This document shows, piece after piece, positions 1 to 56,963 of a stretch of DNA of 64,000 nt (the first letter of the stretch is position 1; each line of letters opens with the position of its first letter). Under the pieces are notes generated by a model. That model had not been told where the DNA came from. It made no database searches and saw only the letters and a list, made by a program, of their open reading frames with translations. A program made the translations under genes and the position numbers. Origin of the DNA: Xestospongia bergquistia (lineage: Eukaryota > Porifera > Demospongiae > Haplosclerida > Petrosiidae); assembly GCA_963965975.1 (NCBI GenBank), contig OZ014413.1:3978001-4042000 (forward strand). The letters run 5' to 3'.

Positions 1-390
1 TGTCCTAATGTAACCATTAAAAGGTGATTATGTTAGGCCATTAAATCATGATCAATGTTAGGCCATTAAAAGACGATCAATGTTAGGCCATTAAAAGATG
101 TAGTTTGAGCATGGCCATTAAAAGATGATCATGTTAGGCCATTGAAAGATGTATTTCGAACATATTAGGCCATCATAAGATGCATTCGAGCATATTATGC
201 CATTAAAAGTTGTAGTTTGAGCATATTAGGCCATTATCAGATGTGTTTTGAGCATATTTGGCCATTAAAAGATGTATTTTGAGCATATTAGGCCATTAAA
301 AGATGCATTTTGAGCATAGTAGGCCATTAAAAGATGTATTTTGAGCATATTAAGCCCTTAACAGATGTCTTTTGAGCATATTAGGCCAAT
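1..390. repeat. Block A copy 1: 31-bp tandem repeat
   Basis: Degenerate tandem array with a core of 'aggccattaaaagatg' followed by 'tattttgagcatatt'. The later units have a 31-bp period (for example, 'gagcatatt' at 250 and 281). The first units are shorter variants with 'atgatcaatgtt'. The array ends exactly at the hairpin element. The opening bases match 54531 onward, so the window begins at a 28-bp array to A junction. No coding potential seen. Confidence 0.9.
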
Positions 391-525
391 AAAAAAGAAT
401 GAGAGGTGGAAGGGTGGGTGGACGGCAATACAGTACCACCTCCACGTTGGTGTCGTCTGGAGCATCATAGGTATCCTAGCTATGATGTACTGAGAGTACT
501 GTCAATCCTCAGCTCATTCTTTTTT
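391..525. other. Element H copy 1: 135-nt multi-hairpin element
   Basis: The ends form a 13-bp perfect inverted repeat (AAAAAAGAATGAG at 391-403, complement at 513-525). Inside are AGGTGG/CCACCT (404-409 with 436-441), CTCCA/TGGAG (440-444 with 458-462), an 8-bp stem CATCATAG/CTATGATG with a 9-nt loop (463-487), and a small GTACT/AGTAC hairpin (487-499). The CCACCT and CTCCA stems overlap by two bases, so they are alternatives or partly exclusive. GC content is clearly higher than the surroundings. All three copies in the window appear identical. It could be a structured RNA ending in a T-run, or a fold-back MITE-like element; I see no target-site duplication and no known RNA family. Confidence 0.6.
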
Positions 526-630
526 GAAGCGTATATAATATAGTAGCTCTGTAGTTTGGCTAGTAGATTGTAAAGTTTGAAATTGTTATGGCAAAAAGTT
601 GTATCAATAATATAGCAAATGTGGCCAGCC

Positions 631-876
631 TCATAACTTTAATGTTGTTTTCACAGTTATACTAAAGCCTCTTTTTAATTGGTTTGCTTTATTCTTTGTC
701 CTTTTTTCCACTTTTTTAACAATTTGTACAGTTTCTGTTATAGTTGGAGAATGCATGTCGAAATGCTTGTTAACACTGGAATGCAAACAGTATCTTTTAC
801 ATATTACCCGCACTTTGTGTATTTTAAACACTATTTCAAAGGCTGTTAAATAATCAAAGCCATTTCTCACTAACAT
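631..876 (-). CDS. Unidentified 81-codon frame in block X, copy 1
   Basis: An ATG-initiated frame of 81 codons on the minus strand, starting MLVRNGFDYLTAFEIV. The C-terminal half is basic, with VEKRTKNKANQLKRG. Two cysteines and two histidines lie in the middle (CKRYCLHSSVNKHFDMH, about residues 25-41), loosely like a zinc-binding cluster, but I do not recognise the family. Copy 2 keeps the frame with one late substitution; copy 3 has a one-base loss in the lysine-rich part and ends early. Retention between recent duplicates is weak evidence of function. It may be an exon or a chance frame. Confidence 0.25.
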   Translation of the reverse strand: MLVRNGFDYLTAFEIVFKIHKVRVICKRYCLHSSVNKHFDMHSPTITETVQIVKKVEKRTKNKANQLKRGFSITVKTTLKL

Positions 877-994
877 ACATGTTTAGCAAAAAATATATAG
901 AATCAGATCAAATTCGACTTGAATGGGGTATATTTGTTATATATATATAAATGTAATTGCTCACATTTTCTATAGAATCTTACCAAATTAGATT

Positions 995-1966
995 ATGTCT
1001 AAAAGCTGGTGGAAGTTAGCTATTACAGTAGTGCAGTATATCAGCATGCTTTGCTACATAAAAGGTACAATAATTTATAAGTTCGTGTGTTAATATATAT
1101 CTTTCGTTGTTAGGATTTAAAGAAATTTTACCATCCATTTTACTTCCCTATAGCCCTGTAGTGATGTATATGGTAAAGAAGGTTATATGACTGTTGACAT
1201 TTTACCAAAGACTGTTAATTACTCTGGAACTTTGCTGCAGTGTGTGTAATTTAACAAACGACTTCTCAGAAAAAGGATATATTACATGTGGTGTCTATTA
1301 TAAACTATATGGTATAGTGCTTGCATTTCTATTTTCAGTTCAGTGGCAATCATTATGTTACTGTTTGTGCTGTCAAGATAGTAGGATGTACCATCAAGTA
1401 CATACTACAAGAACTGGTAAACTGCCCATCATGACCACCTTTTGATTTATTCAATTTATTTGATAATGTGTTATTTTTGTTACATTCTCTACATAAAATT
1501 TGCCAAAACAAAACTGAGTCTGTATTTTTGTTTCTGTTGTTAGAAGTCTTTTAAAACAAACGATAATTGCTTACAGAAATAAGACAAAGGAACATAATGG
1601 ATATGCAGAATCCTATTAAATTGTCCTAAAAAATGGATCATTTTAAGATAAAATCTGCAGTATAGTAGTGCTCCAGTGTATACAGTTATAACAGATTAGG
1701 AAAAGGAGACAGAAATCTCAAAACTTCAAGAATCCTTACAATTCCAAGGATATTATTGATAGTCTACACCAGCAAGTCCATTGGAACGGAAAGACCGTGC
1801 CCACAATGAGGATATATAGGTGGTTATTCTGAATATGATCATTTCAATGACAAGTATAAACTGGTGTGTGGCTCCAAAAACAGGTTGAGCTATATGTGCC
1901 ATACGTATTATCTGACTCACTTGTACAAAACCTAAACTATTTAGTCATTTTCCCATGTGATCGACG
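995..1966 (+). pseudogene. Broken spliced membrane-protein gene, block X copy 1
   Basis: Exon-like pieces run along the plus strand. The first is 995-1064 (ATG, MSKSWWKLAITVVQYIS), ending at AAAG|gtacaa. The second, 1114-1172 after 'ttgttag', continues in phase with FKEILPSILLPYSPVV and ends at ATG|gtaaag. A third, 1241-1416, has a hydrophobic stretch (YGIVLAFLFSVQW) followed by a Cys-rich run (CYCLCC), as at a membrane-to-cytosol border, and ends CTG|gtaaac. Its phase fits the acceptor at 1576, giving EIRQR, but the frame hits a stop after 16 codons because 1607-1745 differs wholly from copy 3. The tail (IGGYSEYDHF in copies 2 and 3) is frameshifted here near 1812. The phase of the join between exons 2 and 3 does not fit cleanly. 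Family not recognised. Confidence 0.4.
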
Positions 1967-3910
1967 CATTCTTTACCTCAAATTTTAGTCAAAATTTTGA
2001 CTACTCAATAGTGAAGTGTTACCCCTGTCTGATGATCCCATTTTGCCAACACCCAGTCACATGATTTCAACATGTAAATATAAAGGATAAAAGCAGATTG
2101 AGGTTTGATGGGTAAATGTTTCCTCTGTTTGAGGAATTCTTGAGAGAGAGAGAGAAATTTAAATAGTCTCATATTATACTCTGCCATTGGTACAAAATAG
2201 CTATACGACAAAAGCAAACTATATTATGTATTGTTTAAAATATTATTGTTATAGGTGTTTGGTGGTAGTGTGTTTATTAGCCACATATTGAAAGCTAAAC
2301 AAACCAGTGCTAGTGAACTGTTCAGAATAAAAATCTGATACCCTAACTGTGGCCAATTTGGAGAGCAAACACATTTAATATTAGGATTCTCTAAACTAGT
2401 TGGACTTATTATTGTATATATAACTGTAACATTAGGTGCTACTGATACTATTGTAAGAAGTAATGGAACTGGAACTCGTAGAGGACAAAGGTGTAATACT
2501 GAGACAGATTATAACTTTTAATAAGTAGATGCTAATATTCTATATATAACTGTAACATTAGGAGCTACTAATACTACTGTAAGAAGTAATCGAACTCCAA
2601 CTCATAGAGGACAAAGGAGTATTACTTACATAGATTATAACTTTTAATAACTAGATACTAATATTGTATATATAACTGTAACATTAGGAGCTACTGATAC
2701 TACTGTAAGAAGTAATGGAACTGCAACTCGTAGAGTACAGAGAAGTAATACTGAGACAGGTTATAAGTTTTAATAACTAGATACTAATATTGTATATACA
2801 ACTGTAACATTAGATGCTACTGATACTATTGTAAGAAGTAATGGAACTGGAACTCGTAGAGGACAAAGGTGTAATACTGAGACAGGTTATAACTTTTAAT
2901 AAGTAGATGCTACTATTGTATATATAACTGTAACATTAGGAGCTACTAATACTACTGTAAGAAGTAATGGAACTCCAACTCATAGAGGACAAAGGAGTAT
3001 TACTGAGATAGGTTATAACTTTTAATAACTAGATACTAATATTGTATATATAACTGTAACTTAAGTCGCTACTGATACTATTGTAAGAAGTAATGGAACT
3101 GGAACTTGTAGAGGACAAAGAAGTATTACTGAGACAGGTTATAACTTTTAATAACTAGATACTAATATTGCATATATAACTGTAACATTAGGAGCTACTG
3201 ATACAACTGTAAGAAGTAATGGAATTGCAACTCGTAGAGGACAAAGGAGTATTACTGAGATAGGTTGTAACTTTTAATATCTAGATAATAATATTGCATA
3301 TATAACTGTAACATTAGGAGCTACTGATACTACTGTAAGAAGTAATGGAACTGGAACTCATTAGAGGACAAAGAAGTATTACTGAGATAAGTTATAACTT
3401 TTAAAAACTAGATACTAATATTGTATATATAACTGTAAAATTAGGAGCTACTGATACTACTGTAAGAAGTAATGGAACTGCAATTTGTAGAGGACAAAGG
3501 AGTAATACTGAGACAGGTTATAACTTTTAATAACTAGATATTAATATTGTATATATAACTGTAACATTAGGTGCTACTGATAGTACGGTAAGAAGTAATG
3601 GAACTGGAACTTGTTGAGGACAAAGGAGTATTACTGAAACAGGTTATAACTTTTAATAACTAGATACTAATATTGTATATATAACTGTAACATTAGGAGC
3701 TACTGATACTACTGTAAGAAGTAATGGAACTCTAACTCATAGAGGACAAAGGAGTATTACTGAGATAGGTTATAAATTTATATAACTAGATACTAATATT
3801 GTATATATAATTGTAACATTAGGAGCTACTGATACTACTGTAAGAAGTAATGGAACTGGAACTCGTAGAGGACAAAGAAGTATTACTGAGACAGGTTATA
3901 ACTTTTAATA

Positions 3911-5040
3911 ACAAGATACTAATATTGTATATATAACTGTAACATTAGGTGCTACTGATACTATTGTAAGAAGTAATGGAACTGGAACTTGTAGAGGACA
4001 AAGGAGTAATACTGAGACAGGTTATAACTTTTAATAACTAGATTCTAATATTGTATATATAAATATAATATTATGAGCTACTGATACTACTGTAAGAAGT
4101 AATGGAACTGGAACTCGTAGAGGACAAAGGAGTATTATTGAGACTTGTTATCACTTTTAATAACTAGATACTAATATTGTATATATAACTGTAACATTAG
4201 GAGCTACTGATACTACTGTAAGACGTAATGGCATTTCAACTCATAGATGACAAAGGAGTATTACTGAGATAGGATATAATTTTTAATAAAGAGATACTAA
4301 TATTGTATATATAATTGTAACATTAGGTGCTACTGATAGTACTGTAAGAAGTAATGGAACTGGAACTTGTATATGACAAAGGAGTATTACTGAAACAGGT
4401 TATAACTTTTAATAACTAGATACCAATATTGTATATATAGCTGTAACATTAGGAGCTACTGATACCAGTGCAAGAAGTAATGGAACTCTAACTCATAGAG
4501 GAGAAAGGAGTATTACTGAGATAGGATATAACTTTTAATAACTAGAGACTAATATTGTATATATACCTGTAACATTAGGAGCTACTGATACTACTGTAAG
4601 AAGTAATGGAACTGGAACTCGTAGAGGACAAAGAAGTATTACTGAGACAGGTTATAACTTTTAATAACAAGATACTAATATTGTATATATAACTGTAACA
4701 TTAGGTGCTACTGATACTATTGTAAGAAGTAATGGAACTGGAACTTGTAGAGGACAAAGGAGTAATACTGAGACAGGTTATAACTTTTAATAACTAGATT
4801 CTAATATTGTATATATAAATATAATATTATGAGCTACTGATACTACTGTAAGAAGTAATGGAACTGGAACTCGTAGAGGATAAAGGAGTATTATTGAGAC
4901 TTGTTATCACTTTTAATAACTAGATACTAATATTGTATATATAACTGTAACATTAGGAGCTACTGATACTACTGTAAGACGTAATGGCATTTCAAATCAT
5001 AGATGACAAAGGAGTATTATTGAGATAGGATATAATTTTT
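3911..5040. repeat. Six-monomer (756-bp) duplication inside array 1
   Basis: The distinctive run with 'taataacaagatact', then 'aaatataatattatgagc', then 'cttgttatcac' and 'cgtaatggcatttcaa' starts at 3911 and again at 4667. The spacing is 756 bp, exactly six 126-bp monomers. The two copies differ at only a few bases, so this is a recent in-phase local duplication. Confidence 0.8.
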
Positions 5041-6300
5041 AATAAAGAGATACTAATATTGTATATATAATTGTAACATTAGGTGCTACTGATAGTACTG
5101 TAAGAAGTAATGGAACTGGAACTCGTAGAGGACAAACAAGTATTACTGAGATAGGTTATAACTTTTAATAACTAGATACTAATATTGTATATATAACTGT
5201 AACATTAGGAACTACTGATACTACTGTAAGAAGTAATGGAACTGGAACTCGTAGAGGACAAAGGTGTAATACTGAGACTGGTTATAACTTTTAATAACTA
5301 GATGCTAATATTGTATATATAACTGTAACATTAGGAGTTGCTAATACTACTGTAAGAAGTAAAGGAACTGGAACTCATAGAGGACAAAGGAGTATTACTG
5401 AGACAGGTTGTAACTTTTAATAACTAGATACTAATATTGTATATATAACTGTAACATTTGGAGCTACTTAAACTATTATAAGAAGTAATGGAAGTGGAAC
5501 TCGTAGAGGACAAATGTGTATTACTGAGACTGGTTATAACTTTTAATAACTAGATACTAATATTGTATATATAACTGTAACATTAGGAGCTACTGATACT
5601 ACTGGAAGAAGTAATGGAACTGGAACTCGTAGAGGACAAAGGTGTAATAGTGAGACAGGTTATAACTTTTAATAACTAGAAGCTAATATTGTATATATAA
5701 CTGTAACATTAGGAGCTACTGATACTACTGTAAGAAGTAATGGAACTGAAACTCATAGAGGACAAAGGAGTATTACTGAGACAGGTTATAACTTTTAATA
5801 ACTAGATGCTAATATTGTATATATAACTGTAACATTAGGAGCTACTAATACTACTGTAAGAAGTAATGGAACTGGAATTCGTAGAGGACAAAGGAGTATT
5901 ACTGAGAAAGGTTTGTAATTTTTAATAACTAGATACTAATATTGTATATATAACTGTAACATTAGGTGCTACTGATACTACTGTAAGAAGTAATGGAACT
6001 GGAACTCGTAAAGGACAAAGGTGTAATACTGAGAGAGGTTATAACTTTTAATAACTAGATACTAATATTGTATATTATAACTGTAACATTAGGAGCTACT
6101 GATACTACTGTAAGAAGTAATGGAACTGGAACTCGTAGAGGACAAAGAAGTATTACTGAGACAGGTTATAACTTTAAATAACTAGATACTAATATTGTAT
6201 ATATAACTGTAACATTAGGAGCTACTGATACTACTGTAAGAAGTAATGGAACTGAAACTCATAGAGGACAAAGGAGTATTACTGAGACAGGTTATAACTT

Positions 6301-9300
6301 TTAATAACTAGATGCTAATATTGTATATATAACTGTAACATTAGGAGCTACTAATACTACTGTAAGAAGTAATGGAACTGGAATTCGTAGAGGACAAAGG
6401 AGTATTACTGAGATAAGTTGTAACTTTTAATAACTAGATACTAATATTGTATATATAACTGTAACATTAGGATCTACTGATACTAAGTAATGGAACAAGA
6501 ACTCGTAGAGGACAAAGAAGTATTACTGAGATATGTTGTAAATTTTAATAACTAGATACTAATATTGTATATATAACTGTAACATAAGGAGCTACTGATA
6601 CTACTGTAAGAAGTAATGGAACTGCAACTCATAGAAGACAAAGGAGTATTACTGAGATAGGTTATAACTTTTAATAACTAGAGACTAATATTGTATATAT
6701 AACTGTAAAATTAGGAGATACTGATACTACTGTAAGAAGTAATGGAACTGGAACTCGTAGAGGACAAAGGTGTAATACTGAGACTGGTTATAACTTTTAA
6801 TAACTAGATGCTAATATTGTATATATAAGTGTAACATTAGGAGCTGCTAATACTACTGTAAGAGGTAAAGGAACTGGAACTCATAGAGGACAAAGGAGTA
6901 TTACTGAGATAGGTTGTAACTTTTAATAACTAGATACTAATATTGTATATATAACTGTAACATTAGGAGCTACTGATACTACTGTGAGAGGTAATGGAAC
7001 TGGAACTCGTAGAGGACAAAGAAGTATTGCTGAGACAGGTTATAACTTTTAATAACTAGATACTAATATTGTATATATAACTGTAACATTTGGAGCTACT
7101 TAAACTATTATAGGAACTAATGGAACTGGAACTCGTAGTGGACAAAGGTGTAATACTGAGACAGGTTATAACTTTTAATAACTAGATGCTAATATTTTAT
7201 ATATAACTGTAACATTAGGAGCTACTGATACTACTGTAAGAAGTAATGGAACTGAAACTCATAGAGGACAAAGGAGTATTACTGAGATAGGTTGTAACTT
7301 TTAATAACTAGATACTAATATTCTATATATAACTGTAACATTAGGAGCTACTGATACTAATGTAAGAAGTAATGCAACTGGAACTCATAGAGGACAAAGA
7401 AGTATTACTGAGACAGGTTATAACTTTTAATAACTAGATACTAATATTGTATATATAACTGTAACATTAGGAGCTACTGATACTACTGTAAGAAGTAATG
7501 GAACTCCAATTCATAGAGGAGAAAGGAGTATTACTGAGATAGGTTATAACTTTTAATAACTAGATACTAATATTGTATATATAACTGTAAAATTAGGAGC
7601 TACTGATACTACTATAAGAAGTAATGGAACTGGTACTCGTAGAGGACAATGGAGTATTACTGAGACTGGTTATAACTTTTAATAACTAGATACTAATATT
7701 GTATATATAACTGTAACATTAGGAGCTACTGATACTACTGTAAGAAGTAATGGAACTGGAACTCGTAGAGGACAAAGGTGTAATACTGAGACAGGTTATA
7801 ACTTTTAATAACTAGATACTAATATTGTATATATAACTGTAACATTAGGAGCTACTGATACTAATGTAAGAAGTAATGGAACTGGAACTCATAGAGGACA
7901 AAGAAGTATTACTGAGACAGGTTATAACTTTTAATAACTAGATACTAATATTGTATATATAACTGTAACATTAGGAGCTACTGATACTACTGTAAGAAGT
8001 AATGGAACTCCAATTCATAGAGGAGAAAGGAGTATTACTGAGATAGGCTATAACTTTTAATAACTAGATACTAATATTGTATATATAACTGTAACATTAG
8101 GATCTACTGATACTAAGTAATGGAACTAGAACTCGTAGAGGACAAAGAAGTATTACTGAGATAGGTTGTAAATTTTAATAACTAGATACTAATATTGTAT
8201 ATATAACTGTAACATAAGGAGCTACTGATACTACTGTAAGAAGTAATGGAACTGCAACTCATAGAAGACAAAGGAGTATTACTGAGATAGGTTATAACTT
8301 TTAATAACTAGAGACTAATATTGTATATATAACTGTAAAATTAGGAGCTACTGATACTACTGTAAGAAGTAATGGAACTGGAACTCATAGAGGACAAAGG
8401 AGTATTACTTAGACAGGTTATAACTTTTAATAACTAGATGCTAATATTGTGTATATAAGTGTAACATTAGGTGCTACTGATACTACTGTAAGAAGTAAAG
8501 GAACTGGAACTCATAGAGGACAAAGGAGTATTACTGAGATAGGTTGTAACTTTTAATAACTAGATACTAATATTGTATATATAACTGTAACATTAGGAGC
8601 TACTGATACTACTGTAAGAAGTAATGGAACTGGAACTCGTAGAGGACAAAGAAGTATTGCTGAGACAGGTTATAACTTTTAATAACTAGATACTAATATT
8701 GTATATATAACTGTAACATTTGGAGCTACTTAAACTATTATAAGAAGTAATGGAACTGGAACTCGTAGAGGACAAAGGTGTAACACTGAGACAGGTTATA
8801 ACTTTTAATAACTAGATGCTAATATTGTATATATAACTGTAACATTAGGAGCTACTGATACTACTGTAAGAAGTAATGGAACTGAAACTCATAGAGGACA
8901 AAGGAGTATTACTGAGATAGGTTGTAACTTTTAATAACTAGATACTAATATTCTATATATAACTGTAACATTAGGAGCTACTGATACTACTGTAAGAAGT
9001 AATGGAACTGAAACTCATAGAGGACAAAGGAGTATTACTGAGACAGGTTATAACTTTTAATAACTAGATGCTAATATTGTATATATAACTGTAACATTAG
9101 GAGCTACTAATACTACTGTAAGAAGTAATGGAACTGGAATTCGTAGAGGACAAAGGAGTATTACTGAGATAAGTTGTAACTTTTAATAACTAGATACTAA
9201 TATTGTATATATAACTGTAACATTAGGATCTACTGATACTAAGTAATGGAACAAGAACTCGTAGAGGACAAAGAAGTATTACTGAGATATGTTGTAAATT

Positions 9301-12300
9301 TTAATAACTAGATACTAATATTGTATATATAACTGTAACATAAGGAGCTACTGATACTACTGTAAGAAGTAATGGAACTGCAACTCATAGAAGACAAAGG
9401 AGTATTACTGAGATAGGTTATAACTTTTAATAACTAGAGACTAATATTGTATATATAACTGTAAAATTAGGAGATACTGATACTACTGTAAGAAGTAATG
9501 GAACTGGAACTCGTAGAGGACAAAGGTGTAATACTGAGACTGGTTATAACTTTTAATAACTAGATGCTAATATTGTATATATAAGTGTAACATTAGGAGC
9601 TGCTAATACTACTGTAAGAGGTAAAGGAACTGGAACTCATAGAGGACAAAGGAGTATTACTGAGATAGGTTGTAACTTTTAATAACTAGATACTAATATT
9701 GTATATATAACTGTAACATTAGGAGCTACTGATACTACTGTGAGAGGTAATGGAACTGGAACTCGTAGAGGACAAAGAAGTATTGCTGAGACAGGTTATA
9801 ACTTTTAATAACTAGATACTAATATTGTATATATAACTGTAACATTTGGAGCTACTTAAACTATTATAGGAACTAATGGAACTGGAACTCGTAGTGGACA
9901 AAGGTGTAATACTGAGACAGGTTATAACTTTTAATAACTAGATGCTAATATTTTATATATAACTGTAACATTAGGAGCTACTGATACTACTGTAAGAAGT
10001 AATGGAACTGAAACTCATAGAGGACAAAGGAGTATTACTGAGATAGGTTGTAACTTTTAATAACTAGATACTAATATTCTATATATAACTGTAACATTAG
10101 GAGCTACTGATACTAATGTAAGAAGTAATGCAACTGGAACTCATAGAGGACAAAGAAGTATTACTGAGACAGGTTATAACTTTTAATAACTAGATACTAA
10201 TATTGTATATATAACTGTAACATTAGGAGCTACTGATACTACTGTAAGAAGTAATGGAACTCCAATTCATAGAGGAGAAAGGAGTATTACTGAGATAGGT
10301 TATAACTTTTAATAACTAGATACTAATATTGTATATATAACTGTAAAATTAGGAGCTACTGATACTACTATAAGAAGTAATGGAACTGGTACTCGTAGAG
10401 GACAATGGAGTATTACTGAGACTGGTTATAACTTTTAATAACTAGATACTAATATTGTATATATAACTGTAACATTAGGAGCTACTGATACTACTGTAAG
10501 AAGTAATGGAACTGGAACTCGTAGAGGACAAAGGTGTAATACTGAGACAGGTTATAACTTTTAATAACTAGATACTAATATTGTATATATAACTGTAACA
10601 TTAGGAGCTACTGATACTAATGTAAGAAGTAATGGAACTGGAACTCATAGAGGACAAAGAAGTATTACTGAGACAGGTTATAACTTTTAATAACTAGATA
10701 CTAATATTGTATATATAACTGTAACATTAGGAGCTACTGATACTACTGTAAGAAGTAATGGAACTCCAATTCATAGAGGAGAAAGGAGTATTACTGAGAT
10801 AGGCTATAACTTTTAATAACTAGATACTAATATTGTATATATAACTGTAACATTAGGATCTACTGATACTAAGTAATGGAACTAGAACTCGTAGAGGACA
10901 AAGAAGTATTACTGAGATAGGTTGTAAATTTTAATAACTAGATACTAATATTGTATATATAACTGTAACATAAGGAGCTACTGATACTACTGTAAGAAGT
11001 AATGGAACTGCAACTCATAGAGGACAAAGGAGTATTACTGAGACAGGTTATAACTTTTAATAACTAGATGCTAATATTGTATATATAACTGTAACATTAG
11101 GAGCTACTAATACTACTGTAAGAAGTAATGGAACTGGAATTCGTAGAGGACAAAGGAGTATTACTGAGATAAGTTGTAACTTTTAATAACTAGATACTAA
11201 TATTGTATATATAACTGTAACATTAGGATCTACTGATACTAAGTAATGGAACAAGAACTCGTAGAGGACAAAGAAGTATTACTGAGATATGTTGTAAATT
11301 TTAATAACTAGATACTAATATTGTATATATAACTGTAACATAAGGAGCTACTGATACTACTGTAAGAAGTAATGGAACTGCAACTCATAGAAGACAAAGG
11401 AGTATTACTGAGATAGGTTATAACTTTTAATAACTAGAGACTAATATTGTATATATAACTGTAAAATTAGGAGATACTGATACTACTGTAAGAAGTAATG
11501 GAACTGGAACTCGTAGAGGACAAAGGTGTAATACTGAGACTGGTTATAACTTTTAATAACTAGATGCTAATATTGTATATATAAGTGTAACATTAGGAGC
11601 TGCTAATACTACTGTAAGAGGTAAAGGAACTGGAACTCATAGAGGACAAAGGAGTATTACTGAGATAGGTTGTAACTTTTAATAACTAGATACTAATATT
11701 GTATATATAACTGTAACATTAGGAGCTACTGATACTACTGTGAGAGGTAATGGAACTGGAACTCGTAGAGGACAAAGAAGTATTGCTGAGACAGGTTATA
11801 ACTTTTAATAACTAGATACTAATATTGTATATATAAATGTAACATTTGGAGCTACTTAAACTATTATAGGAACTAATGGAACTGGAACTCGTAGTGGACA
11901 AAGGTGTAATACTGAGACAGGTTATAACTTTTAATAACTAGATGCTAATATTTTATATATAACTGTAACATTAGGAGCTACTGATACTACTGTAAGAAGT
12001 AATGGAACTGAAACTCATAGAGGACAAAGGAGTATTACTGAGATAGGTTGTAACTTTTAATAACTAGATACTAATATTCTATATATAACTGTAACATTAG
12101 GAGCTACTGATACTAATGTAAGAAGTAATGCAACTGGAACTCATAGAGGACAAAGAAGTATTACTGAGACAGGTTATAACTTTTAATAACTAGATACTAA
12201 TATTGTATATATAACTGTAACATTAGGAGCTACTGATACTACTGTAAGAAGTAATGGAACTCCAATTCATAGAGGAGAAAGGAGTATTACTGAGATAGGT

Positions 12301-45301: not shown

Positions 45302-45322
45302 CTTTAATTAATATTATTATAC

Positions 45323-46226: not shown

Positions 46227-46295
46227 ATCATGGTGCAATATCCATGATCAACTGAGCATGCTCAGTTCGATTAGCCGCTTTTGTGGCGCCAAATT
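46227..46295. promoter_or_regulatory. Palindrome cluster with an E2F-like site, block Y copy 2
   Basis: ATCATGG/CCATGAT hairpin, then the 18-bp perfect palindrome at 46250-46267, then TGGCGCCAAATTT. Unchanged from copy 1, while nearby sequence carries substitutions. Candidate promoter remnant. Confidence 0.35.
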
Positions 46296-46325
46296 TGTAC
46301 TAGAAAATAATAAACTTAGACGCCA

Positions 46326-46500
46326 TTACTTCATTTTAGCAACCAGAGTGTCAGGACTTTACTTCTGCAGGGCTGTTTAGCAAGACCAGATGAAAGAACT
46401 GGATTCCATTACTTCACTTTAGCAACCAGTCTGTTGGGACTTTACTTATGCAGGGCTCTTTAGCAAGACAAGAGGAAACTGGATTCCATGCAGCCAGGCC
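46326..46500. repeat. 83-bp tandem duplication, block Y copy 2
   Basis: Two units starting 'ttacttca' at 46326 and 46409, 83 bp apart, as in copy 1. The sequence from here to 46960 parallels 16961-17420 and holds no supported gene. Confidence 0.85.
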
Positions 46501-46960
46501 ATTTGACAATGTTTTCTGTAGTAAATCTGAGATGATGCCCCTGGCTACAACAAAAGAGAAAGACAGTAGTAACAAATACGGTCAGAGTAGCAGTACTCCA
46601 TGTGTGTTAGTATATCTAGCTTGCCTAACTTAACTTTTAAATTTAGTGAGCTTTAGCCCTTAGTTTTAGTGGATCTGTTATCTGAACTAAGCCTGTCATC
46701 AGTCATTTTTAAACATAATATATCACTAGTCCTTTTCTCTGTAATATATAGACTTTAGTAACCAGTATATTAATTACAATGTAGCAAGTCTGAATAAAAT
46801 TAGTCAAATGTCTTATTTTGTACAAGCCTATTTTCCCCTATTGTGTCTACTTTTGTATCAGTATCAGCTTGTAATGGTCAGAGAATTCCTCTACTCTTGC
46901 ACTTGTTGTGTAGTGCATTACAGCATATAAGACTTCTATATTATTGATAGCCTATTATCT

Positions 46961-49923
46961 GTCTACTGTTTCTGAATGTAACTGTCTCATCCACAGTGTC
47001 TAACATAAATATCCTGTCTAAACAGTGTCCTAGTATAATTGTCATGTCTAATGCATACTAATATAATTGTCCTATCAGCTCAGACCTAATATAGCTGTCC
47101 AATCTACTGTGTTCTAATGTAACTGTCCTGTCTACTATATCCTATTGTAATCATCAGGGCTACTGTATCCTAGTATAATTGTCCTGTGTACTGTGTCCTA
47201 ACGTAGTTGTCTAATCTGCTCTGTCCTATTGTAAACATTCCATTCCAATGTGTTTTCATGTAATTGACAATTTGCCTTGTCCTAATGTAACACCCCTGTC
47301 TACTGTGTCCTAGTATAATTATCCCATTTACTATTTCATAACATAATTTTAGTAACTATTGTGTCTTTGTCTAACCATCTGTTACTGTCTTTTAATTTAA
47401 CTGTCCTATCTACTGTGTCCTAAGGTAACTGTCCTATCTACTGTGTCCTAATGAAATTGTCTCATCTTGCGTGTTCTTAATATAAAATTCCCTTCCACTT
47501 TGTCCTAATGTAATTGCTGATGTAACTTGTCTGTCCTAATGTAATTGCTGATGTAACCTGTCTGTCCTAATGTAACAGTCCCATTAACTGTGTCTTAATG
47601 TACCAGTTTCTTTTACTCTGTCCTAATGTAATTGTCCTTTCTATTCTGTATAATGTAACTATTCAACCTACTGTGTCCTAGTATAATTGTCCCATCTAAT
47701 ATGTCCTAAAGTAAATATCCCATCTACTATGTCTTAATGTAACTGACTTGTGTACTGTGTTGTAACATAATATTCTAATCTACTGTGTCTTATATAATTA
47801 TCCTATCTACTGTGTTTGTATCTGTCCTGCCTACTGTGTCCTAATGTATACAGGTGTCCTATTATAACATTCTATTCCACTAACTGTCCCATTGATTGCG
47901 TCCTAATGTAGACAGGTGTCCTATTATAACATTCTATTCCACTAAATGTCGCATTGACTGTGTCCTAATGTAACTGCTTCTTTTACTGTGTCCTAACATA
48001 AGTGCCCATCTACTGTGTTGTAATGTACTTGTCCCATCTACTGTCTCCTAATTTAATAGCCCTGTCAATTCTGTCTGATATAACTATGCAACTAACTGTG
48101 TCCTAGTGTAATTGTCCATCTACTATGTCTTAACATAATTGTCCTAACCACTGTGTCCTAACGTAATTATCATGTATACCTTGTCATAATATAAGTAACT
48201 GTTGTGTCCTAATGTATCTGTACCATCACATTTACTGTGTTCTAATGTAACATCCTGTCTACTGTGTTGTTGTGTCCATAGTAAGATTGCCCCATCTATT
48301 GTGGTAACTCTTTCATTTACTGTGTTCCAATGTAATATCCAGTCTACTGTATTGTGATGTAATTGTCCTATCTACTGTGTCCTAAAGTAACTGTGTGTCC
48401 TAATGTAACATCATGTCTACTGTGTTCTGATGTAATTGTCCTATCTACTGTGTCCTAACGTAACTGTCCTATTTAATGTGTTTTAATGTAACATCCTGTC
48501 TACTGTGTTGTTATATAGTTGTCCTGTCTACTGTCTTCGTAATTGTCCCATTTACTGTGTCTTTATGTAACCATCCTTTGTGGTGTAATTGTCCTCTCTA
48601 CTGTGTGCCAACATAACTGTCCCATCTACTGTGTCCTAATAGTCCCATCTGCTGTATCCTGATGTGTACGTTTACCTTCTACTGTGTCCTAGCATAATTG
48701 TCTCAACTACTTTGTGATAATGTAATTGTCCAGTATATTCTGTCCAATGTACTGTGTCCTTAGTATAACTGTCCTGTCTACTATGTCCTATTGTGACTGT
48801 CTTGTGTCCTAATGTAATTGTGCTGTCTGCTTTTAATGTAATTGTGCTGTCTGCTCTTAATGTAATCGTGCTGTGTGCTGTGTCCTATTCTAACTACTTG
48901 TCTACTATCTCCTAATGCAATTGTCCCATCGACTATGTCCTACTATAATTTTCCTGTCTACTGTATCCTAATGTATTTGTCTTGTCTAATGTGCTCTATT
49001 GTAATTGTCCATTCTACTGTGTTCTGTAATTGTCAATATACTGTGTGCTAATGTAATTGTCACTTCTACTGTGTTCTATAATTGTCAATATACTGTGTCT
49101 TAATGTGTCTTGTCTACTATATTCAAATGTAAATGTCTCTTCTACAGTGTCCTACTATATTCAATTGTAAATGTCCCTTCTACTGTGTTTTAATATACTT
49201 GTCTCGTCTGCTATTCAATTGTAAATGTCCCTTCTACTGTGTTCTAATATACTTGTCTCGTCTGCTGTGTCTAAATGTAATCGTTTCTTCTATTGTGTCT
49301 TAATGTAACTGTCCCTTCTACAATGTTTTATAATTGTCAATGTACTGTGTCTTAATGTGTCTTGTCTACTCTATTCAAATGTAATTGTTTCTTCTACTGT
49401 GTTCTACTATATTCAATTGTAAATGTCCCTTCTAATGTGTCCTACTATATTCAAATGTAAATGTCCCTTCTACTGTGTTCTAATGTACTTGTCTCGTCTG
49501 CTGTGTCTAAATGTAATTGTCTCTTCTATTGTGTCATAATGTAACTCTCTCATGTCTTAATATAATTGTCCTGTCTACTGTCTCCTAATGTATTTGTCTC
49601 ATCTACTGTGACCTAATGTAATTTTCCATTTACTCTGTCCTACTGTATTTGTCCTGTCTACTGTGTACTAAAGTAATTTTCCTATCTACTGTGTCCCTAT
49701 ATAATTATTCCGTTTGCTATGTTATGATGCTATTTGTCTTTCTTGTTTACTGTGTTTTAATAATTGTCTCATCCACTTTGTCCTAATGTATCAGTCCTGT
49801 CTAATGTGTCCTAATGTAATTGTCCCATCTACTTGACCTAATGTAAGTTTATTGTCTACTGTATGTTGTTTTCTAATGTAGCTGTTGTCATTACTGTGTC
49901 CTTATGTAACCATCCTGACTATT
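46961..49923. repeat. Array Z1 copy 2: diverged 28-bp tandem repeat
   Basis: Collinear with 17421-20410, sharing its irregular units. Small differences include an extra 'ctgtcctaatgtaattgctgatgtaac' unit near 47530, loss of part of a unit near 48640, and loss of about 60-130 bp near 49050 and 49570. Confidence 0.9.
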
Positions 49924-51426
49924 CAAACTTGTTATATTGTTCTAAATTTACTGGTTACTTATTGTCAGCTAGAATTGTAATAATGTCCCTCAGAATTCTA
50001 AGCATGATGTTATTAACTGTTTACTTGTTAAGTAGATGATCATTGTTTGTTACCGTGCTTTCATTTAATGTTATATATCTAGTAAAACTAAACTGGTTGT
50101 GAGTTGTGTATATAACATTCTAACCAAAGTTATCCAACACTATATATTTCATTATGTAGTTAGATTTTTATCTTCTAAGATGATCTGGTGATGTTCTCTC
50201 AACTGTTACCTTGTAAGTTTGATATATTCTACGTGCAATAATTGTTTTTTATAATTATATTACTGGTAGTCTCTTAGCTACATAATTTAATATATACAGC
50301 CACTACAATATAATTCTGAGTTATACATAAATTTTTAACAAAATAATCACTGTTATTCTTTACATATATACATATATATAGAAAGAAAATTTATATATCT
50401 ATAAGGAAACCCTGCCTACTGGTAAGTTATACCTCATAACAGATAGTATATAATAAATTTATAATCATTTAGGAACATATATTGAAGATGGTGTTCCTTT
50501 TAATGGTGAGTTAGGACAAATAATGTATTTGTTTCTTTTCTATGGTTGCTGTTCTATATCACGGACTTTCTATGGTTGCTGCTCTATATGACGGACTATC
50601 TATCTCCTGGAGGCTCTCAGTCTCACCAACATCTTGTAAGTTATATCTACCACTTATTGGATGTTATTAATAATTTACTTATGATATAATTCTCTGATAA
50701 CTGCTGTGAAATAATTCTTTTACTACCTCTACAGTGATGTTGGTATTTCGTTTTTACAACAAAGATGGCGATCTAAGGAGTAACAATATTTAGTCAAGAG
50801 TAACTGTAATCACAAATTATATGTGACAAGCCTTTATCTTAGCTTTTCTAGAGCATTTTAATTTTACTTGTATATGCATGTCTTAACTGACAAGCCTTTA
50901 TCTTAGCTTTTCTAGAGCATTTTAATTTTACTTGTATATTCATGTCTTAACTGACAAGCTTTTATCTTAGCTTTTCTAGAGTATATTAAAAATTTACTTG
51001 TATATGCATGTCTTAACTGACAAGCCTTTATCTTAGGTTTTCTAGAGCATTTTAATTTTACTTGTATATGCATGTCTTAACTGGGAAGCCTTTATCTTAG
51101 CTTTTCTAGAGTATATTAATTTTACATGTATATGCATCTCTTAACTGACAAGCCTTTATCTTAGCTTTTTTAGAGCATTTTAATTTTACTTGTATATGCA
51201 TGTCTTAACTGGGAAGCCTTTATCTTAGCTTTTCTAGAGTATATTAATTTTATTTGTATGTGCATGTCTTAACTGACAAGACTTGGTCTTAGTTTTTCTA
51301 GAGCTTATTAATTTTACTTGAGTTGGTACATACACCGATACTAACAATTTTCTTTGCATGCTTGGAATGTGCAATGAACCTTAAAGTACATGTATAATAT
51401 GATATGTCTTAGCATTCCCTTTAATA
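49924..51426. repeat. Block W copy 2 with expanded 64-bp repeat
   Basis: Near-identical to 20411-21585, including the exon-like borders. The 64-bp unit 'gacaagcctttatcttagc...gcatgtcttaact' occurs about seven times (50825, 50889, 50953 and onward to about 51300), versus about three in copy 1, making this copy roughly 330 bp longer. Confidence 0.88.
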
Positions 51427-54400
51427 GCATAACTGTCCAATCTACTGTGTTCTAATGAAACTGTCCCATCTACTGTGTTCTAACATAACTGTCCCATCTA
51501 ATGTGTTCTAATGTAACTGTCTTGTCTACTGTGTCTTAATGTAACTGTGTGATCTAGTGTGTTCTAAATTGATTTTCCTATCTAATGCGTTCTAATGTAA
51601 CTCTCGCATCTACTCTGTTCGAATGTAATCATCCTGTCTATTGTGTTCTAACATAAGTGTCCCATCTACTCTGTCATAACGTAACTGTCCCATGTACTGT
51701 GTCCTAAAGTAAGTGTCCTAAAGTAATTGTTCCATCTACTGTGTTCTAATGAATCTGTCCAATTAACTGATTTCTAATGTAACTGTCCCATCTACTGTGT
51801 TCTAATAAAACTGTACCATCTACTGTGTTCTAATGAAACTATCCCATCTACTGTGTTCTAATGAAACTGTCTCATCTACCGTGTCCTATAGTAACTGTTT
51901 CATCTACTGTGTTTTAATGTAACTCCCTTGTCTACTGTGTCCTAATGTAACTTGTCTGATCTACTGTTTCCTAAAATCCATCTATTGTGTTCTAATGTAA
52001 CTGTCCAATGAGCTCATTTTTAGTGTTCTAATGTAGCTGTCCAATGAACTCATTTCTAATGTCTAATTTAACTGTCCCATCTAGTGTGTTATAATAAAAC
52101 TGTCCCATCTACTGTGTTCTAATGAAACTGTCTCATCTACTGTGTCCTAAGTAACTGTCATATTTACTGTCCTTTAATGTAACTCTCTTGTCTACTGTGT
52201 CCTAATGTAACTTGTCTGATGTACCGTGTCCTAAATCCATCTACTATGTTCTAATGTAACTGTCCAATGAGCTCATTTCTAGTGTTCTAATGTAACTGTC
52301 CAATGAACTGATTTCTAATGTCTAATTTAACTGTCCCATCTAGTGTGTTCTAATGAAACTGTCCCATCTACTGTGTCCTATAGTAACTGTTATATCTACT
52401 GCCTTTTAATGTAACTCTCTTGTCTACTGTGTCCTAATGTAACTTGTCTGATCTACTGTGTCCTAAAGTAATTGTCCACTCTACTGTCTTCTAATGTAGC
52501 TGTCCAATAAACTGATTTTTACCATAACTGTCCCATCTACTGTGTTATAATGAAACTGTCCCATCTACAGTGTCGCAATGAAACTTTTCCAAAGTAATTG
52601 TCCCCTCTACTGTGTTCCAATGAAACTCTCCCATCTACTGTGTTCTAATGAAATTGTCCCATCTACTGTGTTCTAATGAAACTGTATCATCTACTGTGTT
52701 CTAATAAAACTGACCCATCTACTGTGTCCTAATGAAACTGTTCCAAAGTAATTGTCCCATCTACTGTGTTACAATGAAACTGTCCCATCTACTGTGTTCT
52801 AATGAAACTGTCCTATCTACTGTGTTCTAATGAAACTGTATCATCTACTGTGTTCTAATAAAACTGTCCCATCTACTGTGTCCTAATGTCCTATCAACTG
52901 TGTCCTATTGTGACTGTCCCATCAACTGTGTCCTAGTTTGTCTGTCCCATATACTGTGTCATCTACTATGTCCTAATGTGACTGTCCCATCTAATGTGTC
53001 CTCTAACATAACTGTCCTGTCTATTGTGTTCTAATGTAACTGCCCTATCTACAGTTTTAAAGTAACTGTCATGTCTACTATGTCCTTGTACTGTGTCCTA
53101 AAGTAATTGTCCCATCAACTGTGTCCTAACATAATTGTCCCATCAACTGTGTTCTAATGTAACTGCCCAATCTACTGTGTCCTAAAGTAACTGTCTTGTC
53201 TACTGTGTCTATTGTAACTGACTGATCTATTGTGTCCTCATGTAATTTTCCCATCAACTGTGTTCTTATGTAACTATCCCATCAACTGTGTCTTAACGTC
53301 CTATTAATAGTGTTCTATAGTGACTGTCCCATCAACTGTGTCCTAGTTTGTCTGTCCCATATACTGTGTCATCTACTATGTCCTAATGTGACTGTCCCAT
53401 CTACTGTGTCCTAAAATAACTGTCCTGTCTACTGTGTCCTATTGTAATTGACTGATGTACTGTGTCCTCAAGTAATTGTCCCATCAACTGTGTTCTTATG
53501 TAACTATCCCATCAACTGTGTCCTAATGTCCTATCAACTGTGTCCTATTGTGACTGTCCCATCAACTGTGTCTTAGTTTGACTGTCTCATATACTGTGTC
53601 ATTTACTATGTCCTAATGTGACTGTCCCATCTAATGTGTCCTCTTTCGTAACTGTCCTGTTTATTGTGTTGTAATGTAACTGCCCTATCTACTGTTCTAA
53701 AGTGACTGTCGTGTCTACTATGTCCTTGTACTGTGTCCTAAAGTAATTGTCCCATCAACTGTGTTCTAAAGTAATTGTCCCATCAACTATGTCCTAACAT
53801 AATTGTCCCATCAACTGTGTTCTAATGTAACTGCCCAATCTACTGTGTCCTAAAGTAACTGTCCTGTCTACTGTGTCCTATTGAAACTGACTGATCTATT
53901 GTGTCCTCATGTAATTGTCCCATCAACTGTGTTCTTATGTAACTATCCCATTAACTGTGTCCTAACGTCCTATTAATTGTGTTCTATTGTGACTGTCCCA
54001 TCAACTGTGTCCTAGTTTGTCTGTCCCATATATTGTGTCATCTAATATGTCCTAATGTGACTGTCCCATCTATTGTGTCCTAAAATAACTGTCCTGTCTA
54101 CTGTGTCCTATTGTAATTGACTGATGTACTGTGTCCTCAAGTAATTGTCCCATCAACTGTGTTCTTATGTAACTATCCCATCAACTGTGTCCTAATGTCC
54201 TATCAACTGTGTCCTATTGTGACTGTCCCATCAACTGTGTCCTAGCTTGACTGTCCCATCTAATGTGTCCTCTAACGTAACTGTCCTGTCTATTGTGTTC
54301 TAATGTAACTGCCCTATCTACTGTTCTAAAGTGACTGTCCTATCTACTGTGTCCTTGTACTGTGTCCTAAAGTAATTGTCCCATCAACTGTGTTCTAACG

Positions 54401-54540
54401 TAATTGTCCCATCATTTGTGTTCTAACGTAATTGTCCCATCAACTGTGTTCTAACGTAATTGTCCCATCAACTGTGTTGTAATGTAATTGTCCCATCTAC
54501 TACTTTCTAATGCAATTGACCCATCTACTGTGTCCTAATG
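51427..54540. repeat. Array Z2 copy 2: young 28-bp tandem repeat
   Basis: Same unit as 21586-26502 but about 1.8 kb shorter. The left part follows copy 1, with missing blocks. The right part (52880-54540) is dominated by 'atcaactgtgtcc' composite units that recur in roughly 600-bp blocks. It ends at 'ctgtgtcctaatg' directly against block A, the same junction that opens the window. Confidence 0.92.
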
Positions 54541-54941
54541 TAACCATTAAAAGGTGATTATGTTAGGCCATTAAATCATGATCAATGTTAGGCCATTAAA
54601 AGACGATCAATGTTAGGCCATTAAAAGATGTAGTTTGAGCATGGCCATTAAAAGATGATCATGTTAGGCCATTGAAAGATGTATTTCGAACATATTAGGC
54701 CATCATAAGATGCATTCGAGCATATTACGCCATTAAAAGTTGTAGTTTGAGCATATTAGGCCATTATCAGATGTGTTTTGAGCATATTTGGCCATTAACA
54801 GATGTTTTTTGAGCATATTAGGCTATATTTTGAGCATATTAGGCCATTAAAAGATATATTTTGAGCATAGTAGGCCATTAAAAGATGTATTTTGAGCATA
54901 TTAAGCCCTTAACAGATGTCTTTTGAGCATATTAGGTCAAT
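54541..54941. repeat. Block A copy 3: 31-bp tandem repeat
   Basis: Almost identical to 11-390, including the early 'atgatcaatgtt' variant units, with a partial deletion of one unit near 54820. Confidence 0.9.
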
Positions 54942-55076
54942 AAAAAAGAATGAGAGGTGGAAGGGTGGGTGGACGGCAATACAGTACCACCTCCACGTTG
55001 GTGTCGTCTGGAGCATCATAGGTATCCTAGCTATGATGTACTGAGAGTACTGTCAATCCTCAGCTCATTCTTTTTT
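54942..55076. other. Element H copy 3: 135-nt multi-hairpin element
   Basis: Third occurrence of the hairpin element, apparently identical to those at 391 and 26715. Confidence 0.6.
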
Positions 55077-55225
55077 GAAGCGTATATAATATAGTAGCTC
55101 TGTAGTTTGGCTAGTAGATTGTAAAGTTTGAAATTGTTATGGCAAAAAGTTGTATCAATAATATAGCAAATGTGGCCAGCCTCATAACTTTAATGTTTTT
55201 TTCACAGTTATACTAAAGCCTCTTT

Positions 55226-55426
55226 TTAATTGGTTTGCTTTATTTTTGTCCTTTTTTCCACTTTTTTAACAATTTGTACAGTTTCTGTTATAGTTGGAGA
55301 ATGCATGTCGAAATGCTTGTTAACACTGGAATGCAAACAGTATCTTTTACATATTACCCGCACTTTGTGTATTTTAAACACTATTTCAAAGGCTGTTAAA
55401 TAATCAAAGCCATTTCTCACTAACAT
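55226..55426 (-). pseudogene. Minus-strand frame of block X, copy 3, frameshifted
   Basis: Matches the 81-codon frame of copies 1 and 2 up to KVEKRTK. A one-base loss ('ttatttttg' for 'ttattctttg') then changes the frame and ends it at 66 codons. Confidence 0.3.
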
Positions 55427-55791
55427 ACATGTTTAGCAAAAAATATATAGAATCAGATCAAATTCGACTTGAATGGGGTATATTTGTTATATATATATAA
55501 ATGTAATTGCTCACATTTTCTATAGAATCTTACCAAATTAGATTATGTCTAAAAGCTGGTGGAAGTTAGCTATTACAGTAGTGCAGTATATCAGCATGCT
55601 TTGCTACATAAAAGGTACAATAATTTATAAGTTCGTGTGTTAATATATATCTTTCGTTGTTAAGATTTAAAGAAATTTTACCATCCATTTTACTTCCCTA
55701 TAGCCCTTGTAGTGATGTATATGGTAAAGAAGGTTATATGACTGTTGACATTATACCAAAGACTGTTAATTACTCTGGAACTTTGCTGCAG

Positions 55792-56493
55792 TGTATGTAG
55801 TTTAACAAACGACTTCTCAGAAAAGGACATATTACATGTGATGTCTATTATAAACTATATGGTATAGTGCTTGCATTTCTATTTTCAGTTCAGTGGCAAT
55901 CATTATGTTACTGTTTGTGCTGTCAAGATAGTAGGATGTACCATCAAGTACATACTACAAGAACTGGTAAACTGCCCATCATGACCGCCTTTTGATATAT
56001 TCAATTTATTTGATAATGTGTTGTTTTTGTTAAATTCTCCACATAAAATTTGCCAAGACAAAACTGAGTCTGAATTTAGTTTCTGTTGTTAGAAGTATTT
56101 TAAAACAAATGATAGTTGCTTACAGAAATAAGACAGAGGGACATAATGGATATGCAGTATCCTAAGAACTTAAAACAAATAAGAAAGATTAAACACTTAC
56201 AAACACAACATGATGCAGTTATGACCAAACTCTATACCAGTTTAAAGCGGAAAGAAGATTTTGTAGCGTTAATGAAAAAATCTGAAGAGTACAAGTCTAA
56301 AGGATATTATTGATAGTCTACACCAGCGAGTCCATTGGAACGGAAAGAAGACCGTGCCCACAATGAGGGATATATAGGTGGTTATTCTGAATATGATCAT
56401 TTCAATGACAATTATAAACTGGTGTGTGGCTCCAATAACAGGTTGAGCTATATGTGCCATATGTATTATCAGACTCACTTGTACAAAACCTAA
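55792..56493 (+). pseudogene. Spliced membrane-protein gene remnant, block X copy 3 (tail preserved)
   Basis: Exon 55792-55966 matches the hydrophobic/Cys-rich exon of the other copies but has lost one A (TCAGAAAAGG), breaking its frame. Upstream, the acceptor 'ttgttag' has become 'ttgttaag' and an extra T follows 'tagccc'. The tail exon after 'ttgcttacag' (56126) is open where copies 1 and 2 are not: EIRQRDIMDMQYPKNLKQ, a Lys-rich segment, then MKKSEEYKSKGYY. Two adjacent stops (TGA TAG, 56311-56316) follow, then the same frame continues open for 58 codons (RKEDRAHNEGYIGGYSEY, ending LYKT). It is charged and plausible as a cytosolic tail. Family unknown. Confidence 0.4.
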
Positions 56494-56963
56494 ACTATTT
56501 ACTCATTTTACCATGTGATTGACGCATTCTTTACCTCAAGTTATAGTCAAAATTTTGACTACTCAATAGTGAAGTGTTACCCCTGTCTGATGATCCCATT
56601 TTGCCAACTACCAGTCACATGATTTCAACATGTAAATATAAAGGATAAAAGCAGGCTGAGGTTTGATGGGTAAATGTTTCCTCTGTTTAAGGAATTCTTG
56701 AGAAAGAGAGCAATTTAAATTGTCTCATACTATACTCTGCCATTGGTACAAAATAGCTATAAGACAAAAGCAAATTATATTATGTATTGTTTAAAATATT
56801 ATTGTTATAGGTGTTTGGTGGTAGTGTGTTTTATTAGCCACATATTGAAAGCTAAACAAACCAGTGCTAGTGAACTGTTCAGAATAAACATCTGACACCC
56901 TAACTGTGGCCAATTTGGAGAGCAAACTCATTTAATAGTAGGATTCTCTAAACTAGTTGGACT

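What the first reader, a model, noticed from the sequence alone, without database searches (positions are those of the whole stretch)
1..56963. A 26-28 kb compound module built of five repeat classes is itself tandemly repeated
The order A-H-X-S-Y-Z1-W-Z2 appears twice in full and restarts a third time. The H elements give spacings of 26,324 and 28,227 bp. The difference comes from satellite length, the 1.3-kb segment V, the 64-bp expansion in W and Z2 length. Repeated units that each contain two or more satellite families plus gene fragments suggest a macrosatellite or heterochromatic array whose edge lies at about 56,963. The window opens at the same Z2/A junction as 54,531, so more units probably lie to the left.
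Basis: seen in the sequence. Interest (0 to 1): 0.85.

Follow-up and report, generated by a model that had tools for sequence, protein, structure and literature searches.

The report
Centromere-pointing repeat units carrying ribozymes
Long compound repeat units beside what look like the centromeres of a small animal-like genome all point toward the centromere from both sides of each chromosome, and each carries what looks like a self-cutting RNA; this is an unusual, testable layout for DNA next to centromeres.

Summary
The window is C3:3,978,001-4,042,000 of a 146-Mb, 21-contig genome. Two full compound units and the start of a third lie in tandem; anchor spacings are exactly 26,324 and 28,227 bp, and three more H anchors lie at 18-29 kb steps to the left.

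"Heterochromatic macrosatellite" is supported, but the context is larger. A 34-bp anchor in element H occurs 58 times on 11 contigs. On all 11 a 143-bp satellite array (candidate centromere) lies on the 3' side of every copy: 58 of 58 copies, 16 of 16 arm clusters. Units group by chromosome across both arms, so homogenisation crosses the core.

The claimed edge at 56,963 is only where the 126-bp satellite is missing; the DNA beyond it follows H at several other loci.

H begins with a complete HDV-like ribozyme fold (window 420, 26,744, 54,971). Genome-wide, 28 of 29 drz-agam-1 matches at E<=10 lie in H copies, all below Rfam's cut-off.

Best reading: a pericentromeric macrosatellite kept in centromere-facing polarity because other orientations recombine into dicentric, acentric or centromere-less products. 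Polarity is shown; centromere identity, ribozyme activity and mechanism are inferred.

The parts
1..394 (+). A: 31-bp repeat, unit 1
395..2406 (+). H, unit 1: 58 genome-wide copies by the 34-bp anchor; 395-1698 is the part aligned across 30 copies
420..502 (+). HDV-like ribozyme fold in H, unit 1 (predicted cleavage before G420; catalytic-C equivalent C490)
2407..15653 (+). S: 126-bp satellite array, unit 1 (about 105 copies)
15661..16570 (+). X1: dispersed gene-fragment module; OSCP-like exon on the minus strand at 16458-16562
16571..17422 (+). X2: module that lies with W and H on other chromosomes
17423..20400 (+). [not shown]
20401..21587 (+). W: 40 loci found (40 of 64 candidates scored), 40 of 40 oriented toward the candidate core; contains the 64-bp repeat
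21588..26501 (+). [not shown]
26502..28732 (+). A+H, unit 2
26744..26826 (+). HDV-like ribozyme fold, unit 2 (same 89 letters as unit 1)
28733..43910 (+). S: 126-bp satellite array, unit 2 (about 120 copies)
43911..45199 (+). V: unit-2-only segment, possible POT transporter gene fragment (weak)
45200..46960 (+). X1+X2, unit 2
46961..54530 (+). [not shown]
54531..56964 (+). A+H, unit 3 (H 93.7-94.1% identical to units 1 and 2)
54971..55053 (+). HDV-like ribozyme fold, unit 3 (same 89 letters as unit 1)
56965..58750 (+).

Best explanation
[not shown]
For: 58 of 58 H anchors on 11 contigs face the 143-bp array of their contig; 16 of 16 arm clusters; on 5 of 5 contigs with both signs every + copy is left of every - copy (core positions). 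40 of 40 W loci found obey the same rule (counted by eye; 40 of 64 candidates were scored). H tree of 30 of the 58 copies: C1, C7, C9 and C3 clades mix both arms. Mean identity, same chromosome and opposite arm, 0.945 (32 pairs), against 0.908 for different chromosomes and opposite strand (177 pairs). Four C3-type H copies on the C9 left arm are 98.7-99.0% identical to the window's. 12 of 17 sampled 10-kb stretches between the C3 arms are 143-bp satellite with no stop-to-stop frame over 65 codons. S monomers match best within their own array: of 90 unit-1 monomers 72% have a >=99% match in their own array and 4% in unit 2's; of 104 unit-2 monomers 23% have one in their own array, although H is 98.0% and X 98.5% identical between the units.
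Against: No CENP-A, chromatin, RNA or read data, so the centromere is a candidate only. Copies within clusters are not independent. No unrelated repeat family was tested as a control for polarity. Other modules break the rule: 1 of 9 X1 loci outside the H arrays (C6:3.221 Mb, 40 of 443 candidates scored), an S array at C4 6.23 Mb (100 of 1,105 places listed), and an F copy at C4 1.465 Mb. C10 has X2 copies but no core at 5 sampled points. Core extents are minimal (C14 rests on one place; C5 and C14 were missed at 10 and 8 sampled points). On C5 the H copy is 1.77 Mb from the core. With C3 and the C3-type copies left out, same-arm identity (0.971, 9 pairs) is a little above opposite-arm (0.959, 14 pairs). 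One C7 row and one C3 row fall outside their chromosome's clade. Inverted repeats also allow isochromosomes (PMC10813616, passages), so centromere-facing polarity is not cost-free.
Confidence: 0.72

Rival explanations
1. Polarity is functional: centromere-directed transcription of the units, trimmed by the ribozyme at each H, makes RNA that nucleates or bounds pericentric heterochromatin, as outer-repeat transcripts do in fission yeast (recalled).
For: Ribozyme fold on the centromere-facing strand in all three H copies of the window; the catalytic-C equivalent and the A three bases on are kept in 58 of 58 anchors (by eye; the <=3-mismatch filter favours this).
Against: No transcription data; the longest stop-to-stop stretch inside H is 84 codons; no compensatory change in 28 pairs and paired cells no higher than in shuffles; the ribozyme stretch is not clearly more conserved than the rest of H; several copies have broken pairs.
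Confidence: 0.15
2. Pure descent: one ancestral chromosome had mirrored arms, and whole-arm exchanges copied them to the others, with no ongoing selection on polarity.
For: The module order X2-W-H is shared across five chromosomes besides C3.
Against: Chromosome-specific clades and recent C3-C9 sharing mean that turnover continues, yet no reversed copy is seen among 58.
Confidence: 0.2
3. H is a directly inserting ribozyme-bearing retroelement with an orientation preference at pericentromeres.
For: HDV-like ribozymes sit in R2 and other LINE retroelements (passages of PMC7761336).
Against: H copies lie with the same neighbouring modules in the same order, so they spread as parts of units; the 25 bases before the cleavage site are shared by most of the 14 copies printed; no reverse-transcriptase match in the few H fragments tested.
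Confidence: 0.08
4. Assembly artefact in a collapsed or mis-joined repeat.
For: Tandem satellites are hard to assemble; the C3 contig has N runs elsewhere (L013, L015).
Against: No N in the window; the same module order on other chromosomes; units differ by 2-6% and by private segments.
Confidence: 0.06

Closest known systems
Fission yeast centromere (central core with inverted imr/otr repeats)
   Same: Repeats in inverted orientation on both sides of a core; recombination between the sides gives inversions and isochromosomes (PMC10813616, passages read).
   Different: Here the repeats are macrosatellite units, H copies a median of about 24 kb apart (27 spacings on C1, C3 and C9, 3.4-211 kb), separated from a satellite core by gene-bearing DNA on C3, in a genome with animal-like genes; no RNAi or chromatin data.
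Macro-dyad symmetric (peri)centromeric satellites of Tribolium madens, T. freemani and T. castaneum
   Same: Large-scale inverted arrangement at putative (peri)centromeres; the sampled C3 143-bp array also changes strand near both ends.
   Different: In Tribolium the satellite arrays themselves form the dyads; here complex units keep one polarity per arm on 11 of 11 contigs (abstract and first of two parts of the Discussion of PMC13081366 read).
Human subtelomeric duplications with telomere-facing orientation (recalled, no call)
   Same: Same selection logic: only same-polarity exchanges give viable chromosomes.
   Different: Subtelomere, not pericentromere.
Hammerhead-ribozyme satellites (newt, schistosome, Dolichopoda)
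   Same: Self-cleaving ribozyme in tandemly repeated DNA (passages and reference titles in PMC7761336).
   Different: Here the fold is HDV-like and occurs once per unit of tens of kb, not once per short monomer (about 150-300 bp in animals, PMC7761336).

Membership tests
Macrosatellite (tandem kb-scale unit) | kb-scale unit, tandem, same order, high identity | tested here: met
Macrosatellite (tandem kb-scale unit) | copy-number variation between individuals | not testable with these tools
   no reads or second individual
Pericentromeric repeat | lies beside the centromere on many chromosomes | tested here: inconclusive
   beside a 143-bp satellite on 11 of 11 contigs with H, though 0.87 and 1.77 Mb off on C14 and C5; centromere function untested
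Fission-yeast-type inverted centromere flanks | same repeat in opposite orientation on the two sides of the core | tested here: met
   5 of 5 contigs with copies on both sides
Fission-yeast-type inverted centromere flanks | RNAi-directed H3K9 methylation on the flanks, CENP-A on the core | not testable with these tools
   no chromatin data
Macro-dyad satellite (Tribolium type) | satellite arrays inverted within the (peri)centromere | tested here: met
   of 12 C3 samples, L017, L018 and L028 carry the opposite strand to L019-L027; only C3 was sampled densely
HDV-like ribozyme (drz) | P1 (7 bp), P2, P3, P1.1 and P4 in a double pseudoknot | tested here: met
   28 pairs, 97.1% of 560 cells paired over 20 rows, against 22-50% when slid, but shuffles give 97.0% because the rows hardly vary; a descriptor written after the fold was seen hits only the 3 H copies in the window and nothing in 40 x 64 kb random sequence
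HDV-like ribozyme (drz) | catalytic C in J4/2 | tested here: met
   C490 in the window; 58 of 58 anchors (by eye); one A stands before it in J4/2
HDV-like ribozyme (drz) | score over Rfam gathering cut-off | tested here: not met
   best 31.1 bits against 37 for RF01787; RF00094 24.3 against 50, none at E<=10 genome-wide
HDV-like ribozyme (drz) | self-cleavage | not testable with these tools
   needs in vitro transcription
R2/LINE 5'-end ribozyme | reverse transcriptase downstream | tested here: inconclusive
   no match in the 3 H fragments and 1 X2 fragment sent to Pfam or in the H/S-spanning frame 2224-2508; most H fragments were not sent

The most novel reading that the evidence does not exclude
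Each pericentromeric unit is a directional transcription and processing unit: transcripts running toward the centromere are cut by the HDV-like ribozyme at the start of every H, giving 5'-OH RNAs of defined length that mark pericentric chromatin. The polarity would then be both a recombination safeguard and a functional requirement. This would be an animal-like pericentromere with mirrored, ribozyme-punctuated repeats.
Probability: 0.1. Interest if true: 0.88.

Novelty: new variant of a known kind. Interest (0 to 1): 0.62.

Why it matters
A genome-wide polarity of pericentromeric repeats toward the centromere makes a general idea testable: that the survival of recombination products shapes the orientation of repeats around centromeres. 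It also gives sequence markers (143-bp core, H-bearing flanks) for mapping centromeres in this genome and its relatives, and a possible HDV-like ribozyme family in pericentromeric DNA.

Tried and rejected
Rejected: S as a coding tandem repeat (all six frames of the monomer consensus carry stops). Rejected: the array edge at 56,963 as a family edge. Rejected: TTAGGG telomeres as landmarks (0 hits for five repeats; C3 ends carry TTTAGGG-type repeats). The Rfam gathering search of the window gave nothing, and a permissive whole-window search did not list the ribozyme at E<=10; the match shows only in short-stretch searches and in other subfamilies (14 of 20 loci at E<=5; the six not listed are L053, L054, L057, L058, L071, L072). 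Genome-wide RF00094 gave nothing at E<=10 (85 of 184 candidates scored). The genome-wide RF01787 list (56 of 5,814 candidates scored) holds none of the C1, C3 or C14 copies, so the window's own copies are not in it. The 14 control genomes rang in 11 at E<=10 (none over cut-off), so weak single hits to that model are common by chance; what speaks for H is that 28 of the 29 places are one family, though these are relatives and count as one event. Covariation: no double changes and no excess over shuffles, so it neither supports nor refutes the fold. Rows dropped: of 30 H copies 21 distinct ribozyme stretches were found and 20 aligned, the truncated C6 copy left out; only monomers of exactly 126 bp were used (90 of 100 and 104 of 119 anchors). 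C1 +18,221/-18,747 (0.978) hinted at nested pairing of arms; too few copies to claim. Ten paper searches showed, in the listings seen, no report of a sponge centromere or of an HDV-like ribozyme in a macrosatellite; listings were capped (15 of 1,562 shown) and only open-licence papers are held. Five papers were opened: abstract and first part of the Discussion of PMC13081366, and passages of PMC10767889, PMC10813616, PMC7761336 and PMC10879173.
Full report
Where the window lies. The search tool places it at C3:3,978,001-4,042,000 of a genome of 146,460,797 bases in 21 contigs. C3 is 11.48 Mb long and both its ends carry TTTAGGG-type repeats. Flank frames include RCC1-repeat, MFS and POT-family matches; by recall, other frames (kinesin, formin and MYCBP2 look-alikes) read as animal, and the size and gene style suggest a sponge. 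That identification is inference, not a test; TTTAGGG is described as the plant-type repeat and TTAGGG as the animal one (PMC10767889, passages).

The observation. Self-BLAST and TRF confirm two full units and the start of a third. Anchor positions give spacings of exactly 26,324 and 28,227 bp. Three further anchors lie to the left at steps of 28.6, 19.3 and 18.5 kb, and one outlier 211 kb further left. H is 98.0% and X 98.5% identical between units 1 and 2; unit 3's H is 93.7-94.1%.

How the unit is built. X is a chimera. X2 lies with W and H on C4, C6, C7, C8 and C9, in the order X2, then W, then H on the same strand. X1 belongs to another dispersed family and carries an OSCP exon on its minus strand (PF00213, E 2.2e-7). 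V shows only a nine-residue likeness to the neighbouring POT gene and no Pfam match in the three fragments sent. The DNA behind unit 3 (57,300-58,750) also lies behind H, within 2.3 kb, on C3, C7 and C9. So the shared module runs on beyond 56,963, and in units 1 and 2 the S satellite and X1 sit where that DNA is expected (inference). S monomers resemble their own array most: of 90 unit-1 monomers 72% have a >=99% match in their own array and 4% in unit 2's; of 104 unit-2 monomers only 23% have one in their own array; mean best match is 0.988 and 0.973 within arrays against 0.966 and 0.960 between them. S therefore turns over locally, more clearly in unit 1, while H and X are kept alike between units.

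The setting. Sampling 10 kb every 50 kb across C3 4.05-4.86 Mb gave 17 stretches; 12 of them (4.15-4.71 Mb) are a 143-bp satellite, 93-100% covered, with no stop-to-stop frame over 65 codons, and the other 5 lack it and carry longer frames. Short samples tested the prediction that the same satellite lies between the arms elsewhere: found on C9 (5 of 6 points), C7 (2 of 6), C1 (4 of 4) and C4 (2 of 4), then on C2 (2 of 3), C6 (3 of 3), C8 (2 of 4), C13 (2 of 2) and C15 (5 of 5). It was not hit on C5 (10 points), C14 (8 points) or C10 (5 points) by sampling; pattern searches then placed it on C5 at 4.50-4.64 Mb, on C14 at 2.82 Mb and also on C12 (one search lists 100 of 4,002 places). C10 remains without a core, and C11 was not examined.

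Polarity. A 34-bp anchor chosen from 30 aligned H copies occurs 58 times, 34 forward and 24 reverse, all listed, none for the reversed control. Every copy lies on the side of its contig's 143-bp array that makes its 3' end face the array: 58 of 58, in 16 of 16 arm clusters on 11 contigs. Counting clusters as units and allowing either overall sign gives 3.1e-5; shuffling signs within the 5 contigs with both signs gives 1.3e-9, which overstates independence. The 40 W loci found agree, 40 of 40 (by eye; 40 of 64 candidates scored). Exceptions in other modules: 1 of 9 X1 loci outside the H arrays (C6, 3.221 Mb), the C4 6.23-Mb S array and an F copy at C4 1.465 Mb. No unrelated family was tested as a control.

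Cross-arm relatedness. A tree of 30 H rows puts left- and right-arm copies of C1, C7 and C9 in chromosome-specific clades, and C3's two arms together with four C9 copies. One of the four C7 rows (5,688 kb) falls outside its clade, and the isolated C3 3,700-kb copy outside the C3 clade. Mean identity: same chromosome, opposite arm 0.945 (32 pairs); same chromosome, same arm 0.946 (38); different chromosomes 0.908-0.910 (365). Without C3 and the C3-type copies it is 0.959 (14), 0.971 (9) and 0.918-0.919 (148). Homogenisation thus crosses the core nearly as well as it runs along one arm. The four C9 copies at 4.446-4.549 Mb are 98.7-99.0% identical to the window's H: a recent transfer between chromosomes that kept the polarity.

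The ribozyme. Window 418-502 aligns over its full length to two HDV-like models, RF00094 (24.3 bits) and drz-agam-1 RF01787 (21.0), both below cut-off. In other H subfamilies drz-agam-1 reaches 31.1 bits, E 0.014, with 14 of 20 loci listed at E<=5. Genome-wide, 28 of 29 RF01787 matches at E<=10 are H copies and none passes the cut-off; RF00094 gives none. The fold has P1 of 7 bp, P2 of 7, P3 of 3, P1.1 of 2 and P4 of 9; 97.1% of cells pair over 20 rows, against 22-50% for slid versions, but no pair shows compensatory change and shuffles reach the same figure because the rows hardly vary. A structural descriptor, written after I had seen the fold, finds exactly 420, 26,744 and 54,971 (and their +1 shifts) in both strands of the window and nothing in 40 x 64 kb of random sequence. 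In drz descriptors the catalytic C is the first position of J4/2 (PMC10879173, passages); here one A precedes it. I put the ribozyme identity at about 0.85 and activity in at least some copies at about 0.6.

Mechanism. Tandem units spread by unequal exchange and conversion. Between different chromosomes, exchange between centromere-facing copies gives monocentric products; exchange involving a reversed copy gives dicentric and acentric ones. Across one centromere, direct repeats would delete it and inverted repeats only flip it. Fission yeast shows that repeats across a centromere do recombine, with inversions and isochromosomes as outcomes (PMC10813616, passages). This explains polarity without a sequence-specific function; I put that mechanism at about 0.5 and the pericentromeric macrosatellite reading at about 0.85. 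A functional reading with directed transcription and ribozyme trimming is not excluded.

Novelty. Inverted flanks and macro-dyad satellites are known, and hammerhead satellites are known. A repeat family with one polarity toward the core on 11 of 11 contigs, with an HDV-like fold once per unit of tens of kb, I did not find in the listings of the searches named in Tried and rejected. Hence a new variant of a known kind.

Noticed in passing
L013, L014 (C3 ends): C3 telomeres are CTAAACC/GGTTTAG (TTTAGGG-type), unusual for an animal-like genome; the right end continues into an AAACTTT-rich run that may be a sequencing artefact.
   Followed up: partly
L017-L028 (C3 4.15-4.71 Mb): The 143-bp satellite is on the reverse strand in L017, L018 and L028 and on the forward strand in L019-L027: a macro-dyad.
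   Followed up: partly
window 391-403 and 512-524: AAAAAAGAATGAG and CTCATTCTTTTTT form an inverted repeat around the ribozyme fold; largely kept in other H copies.
   Followed up: partly
L031:1931-3199: 423-codon frame with a weak bacterial solute-binding-protein match (PF01547, E 0.0065, below cut-off) near the C3 core; possible bacterial-type gene.
   Followed up: no
C15:4980959-4981040: The only listed RF01787 match at E<=10 outside H (E 1.64).
   Followed up: no
C4 6.23/6.59 Mb, C5 6.64 Mb, C3 6.72 Mb: S satellite also occurs about 2 Mb from the candidate cores.
   Followed up: no
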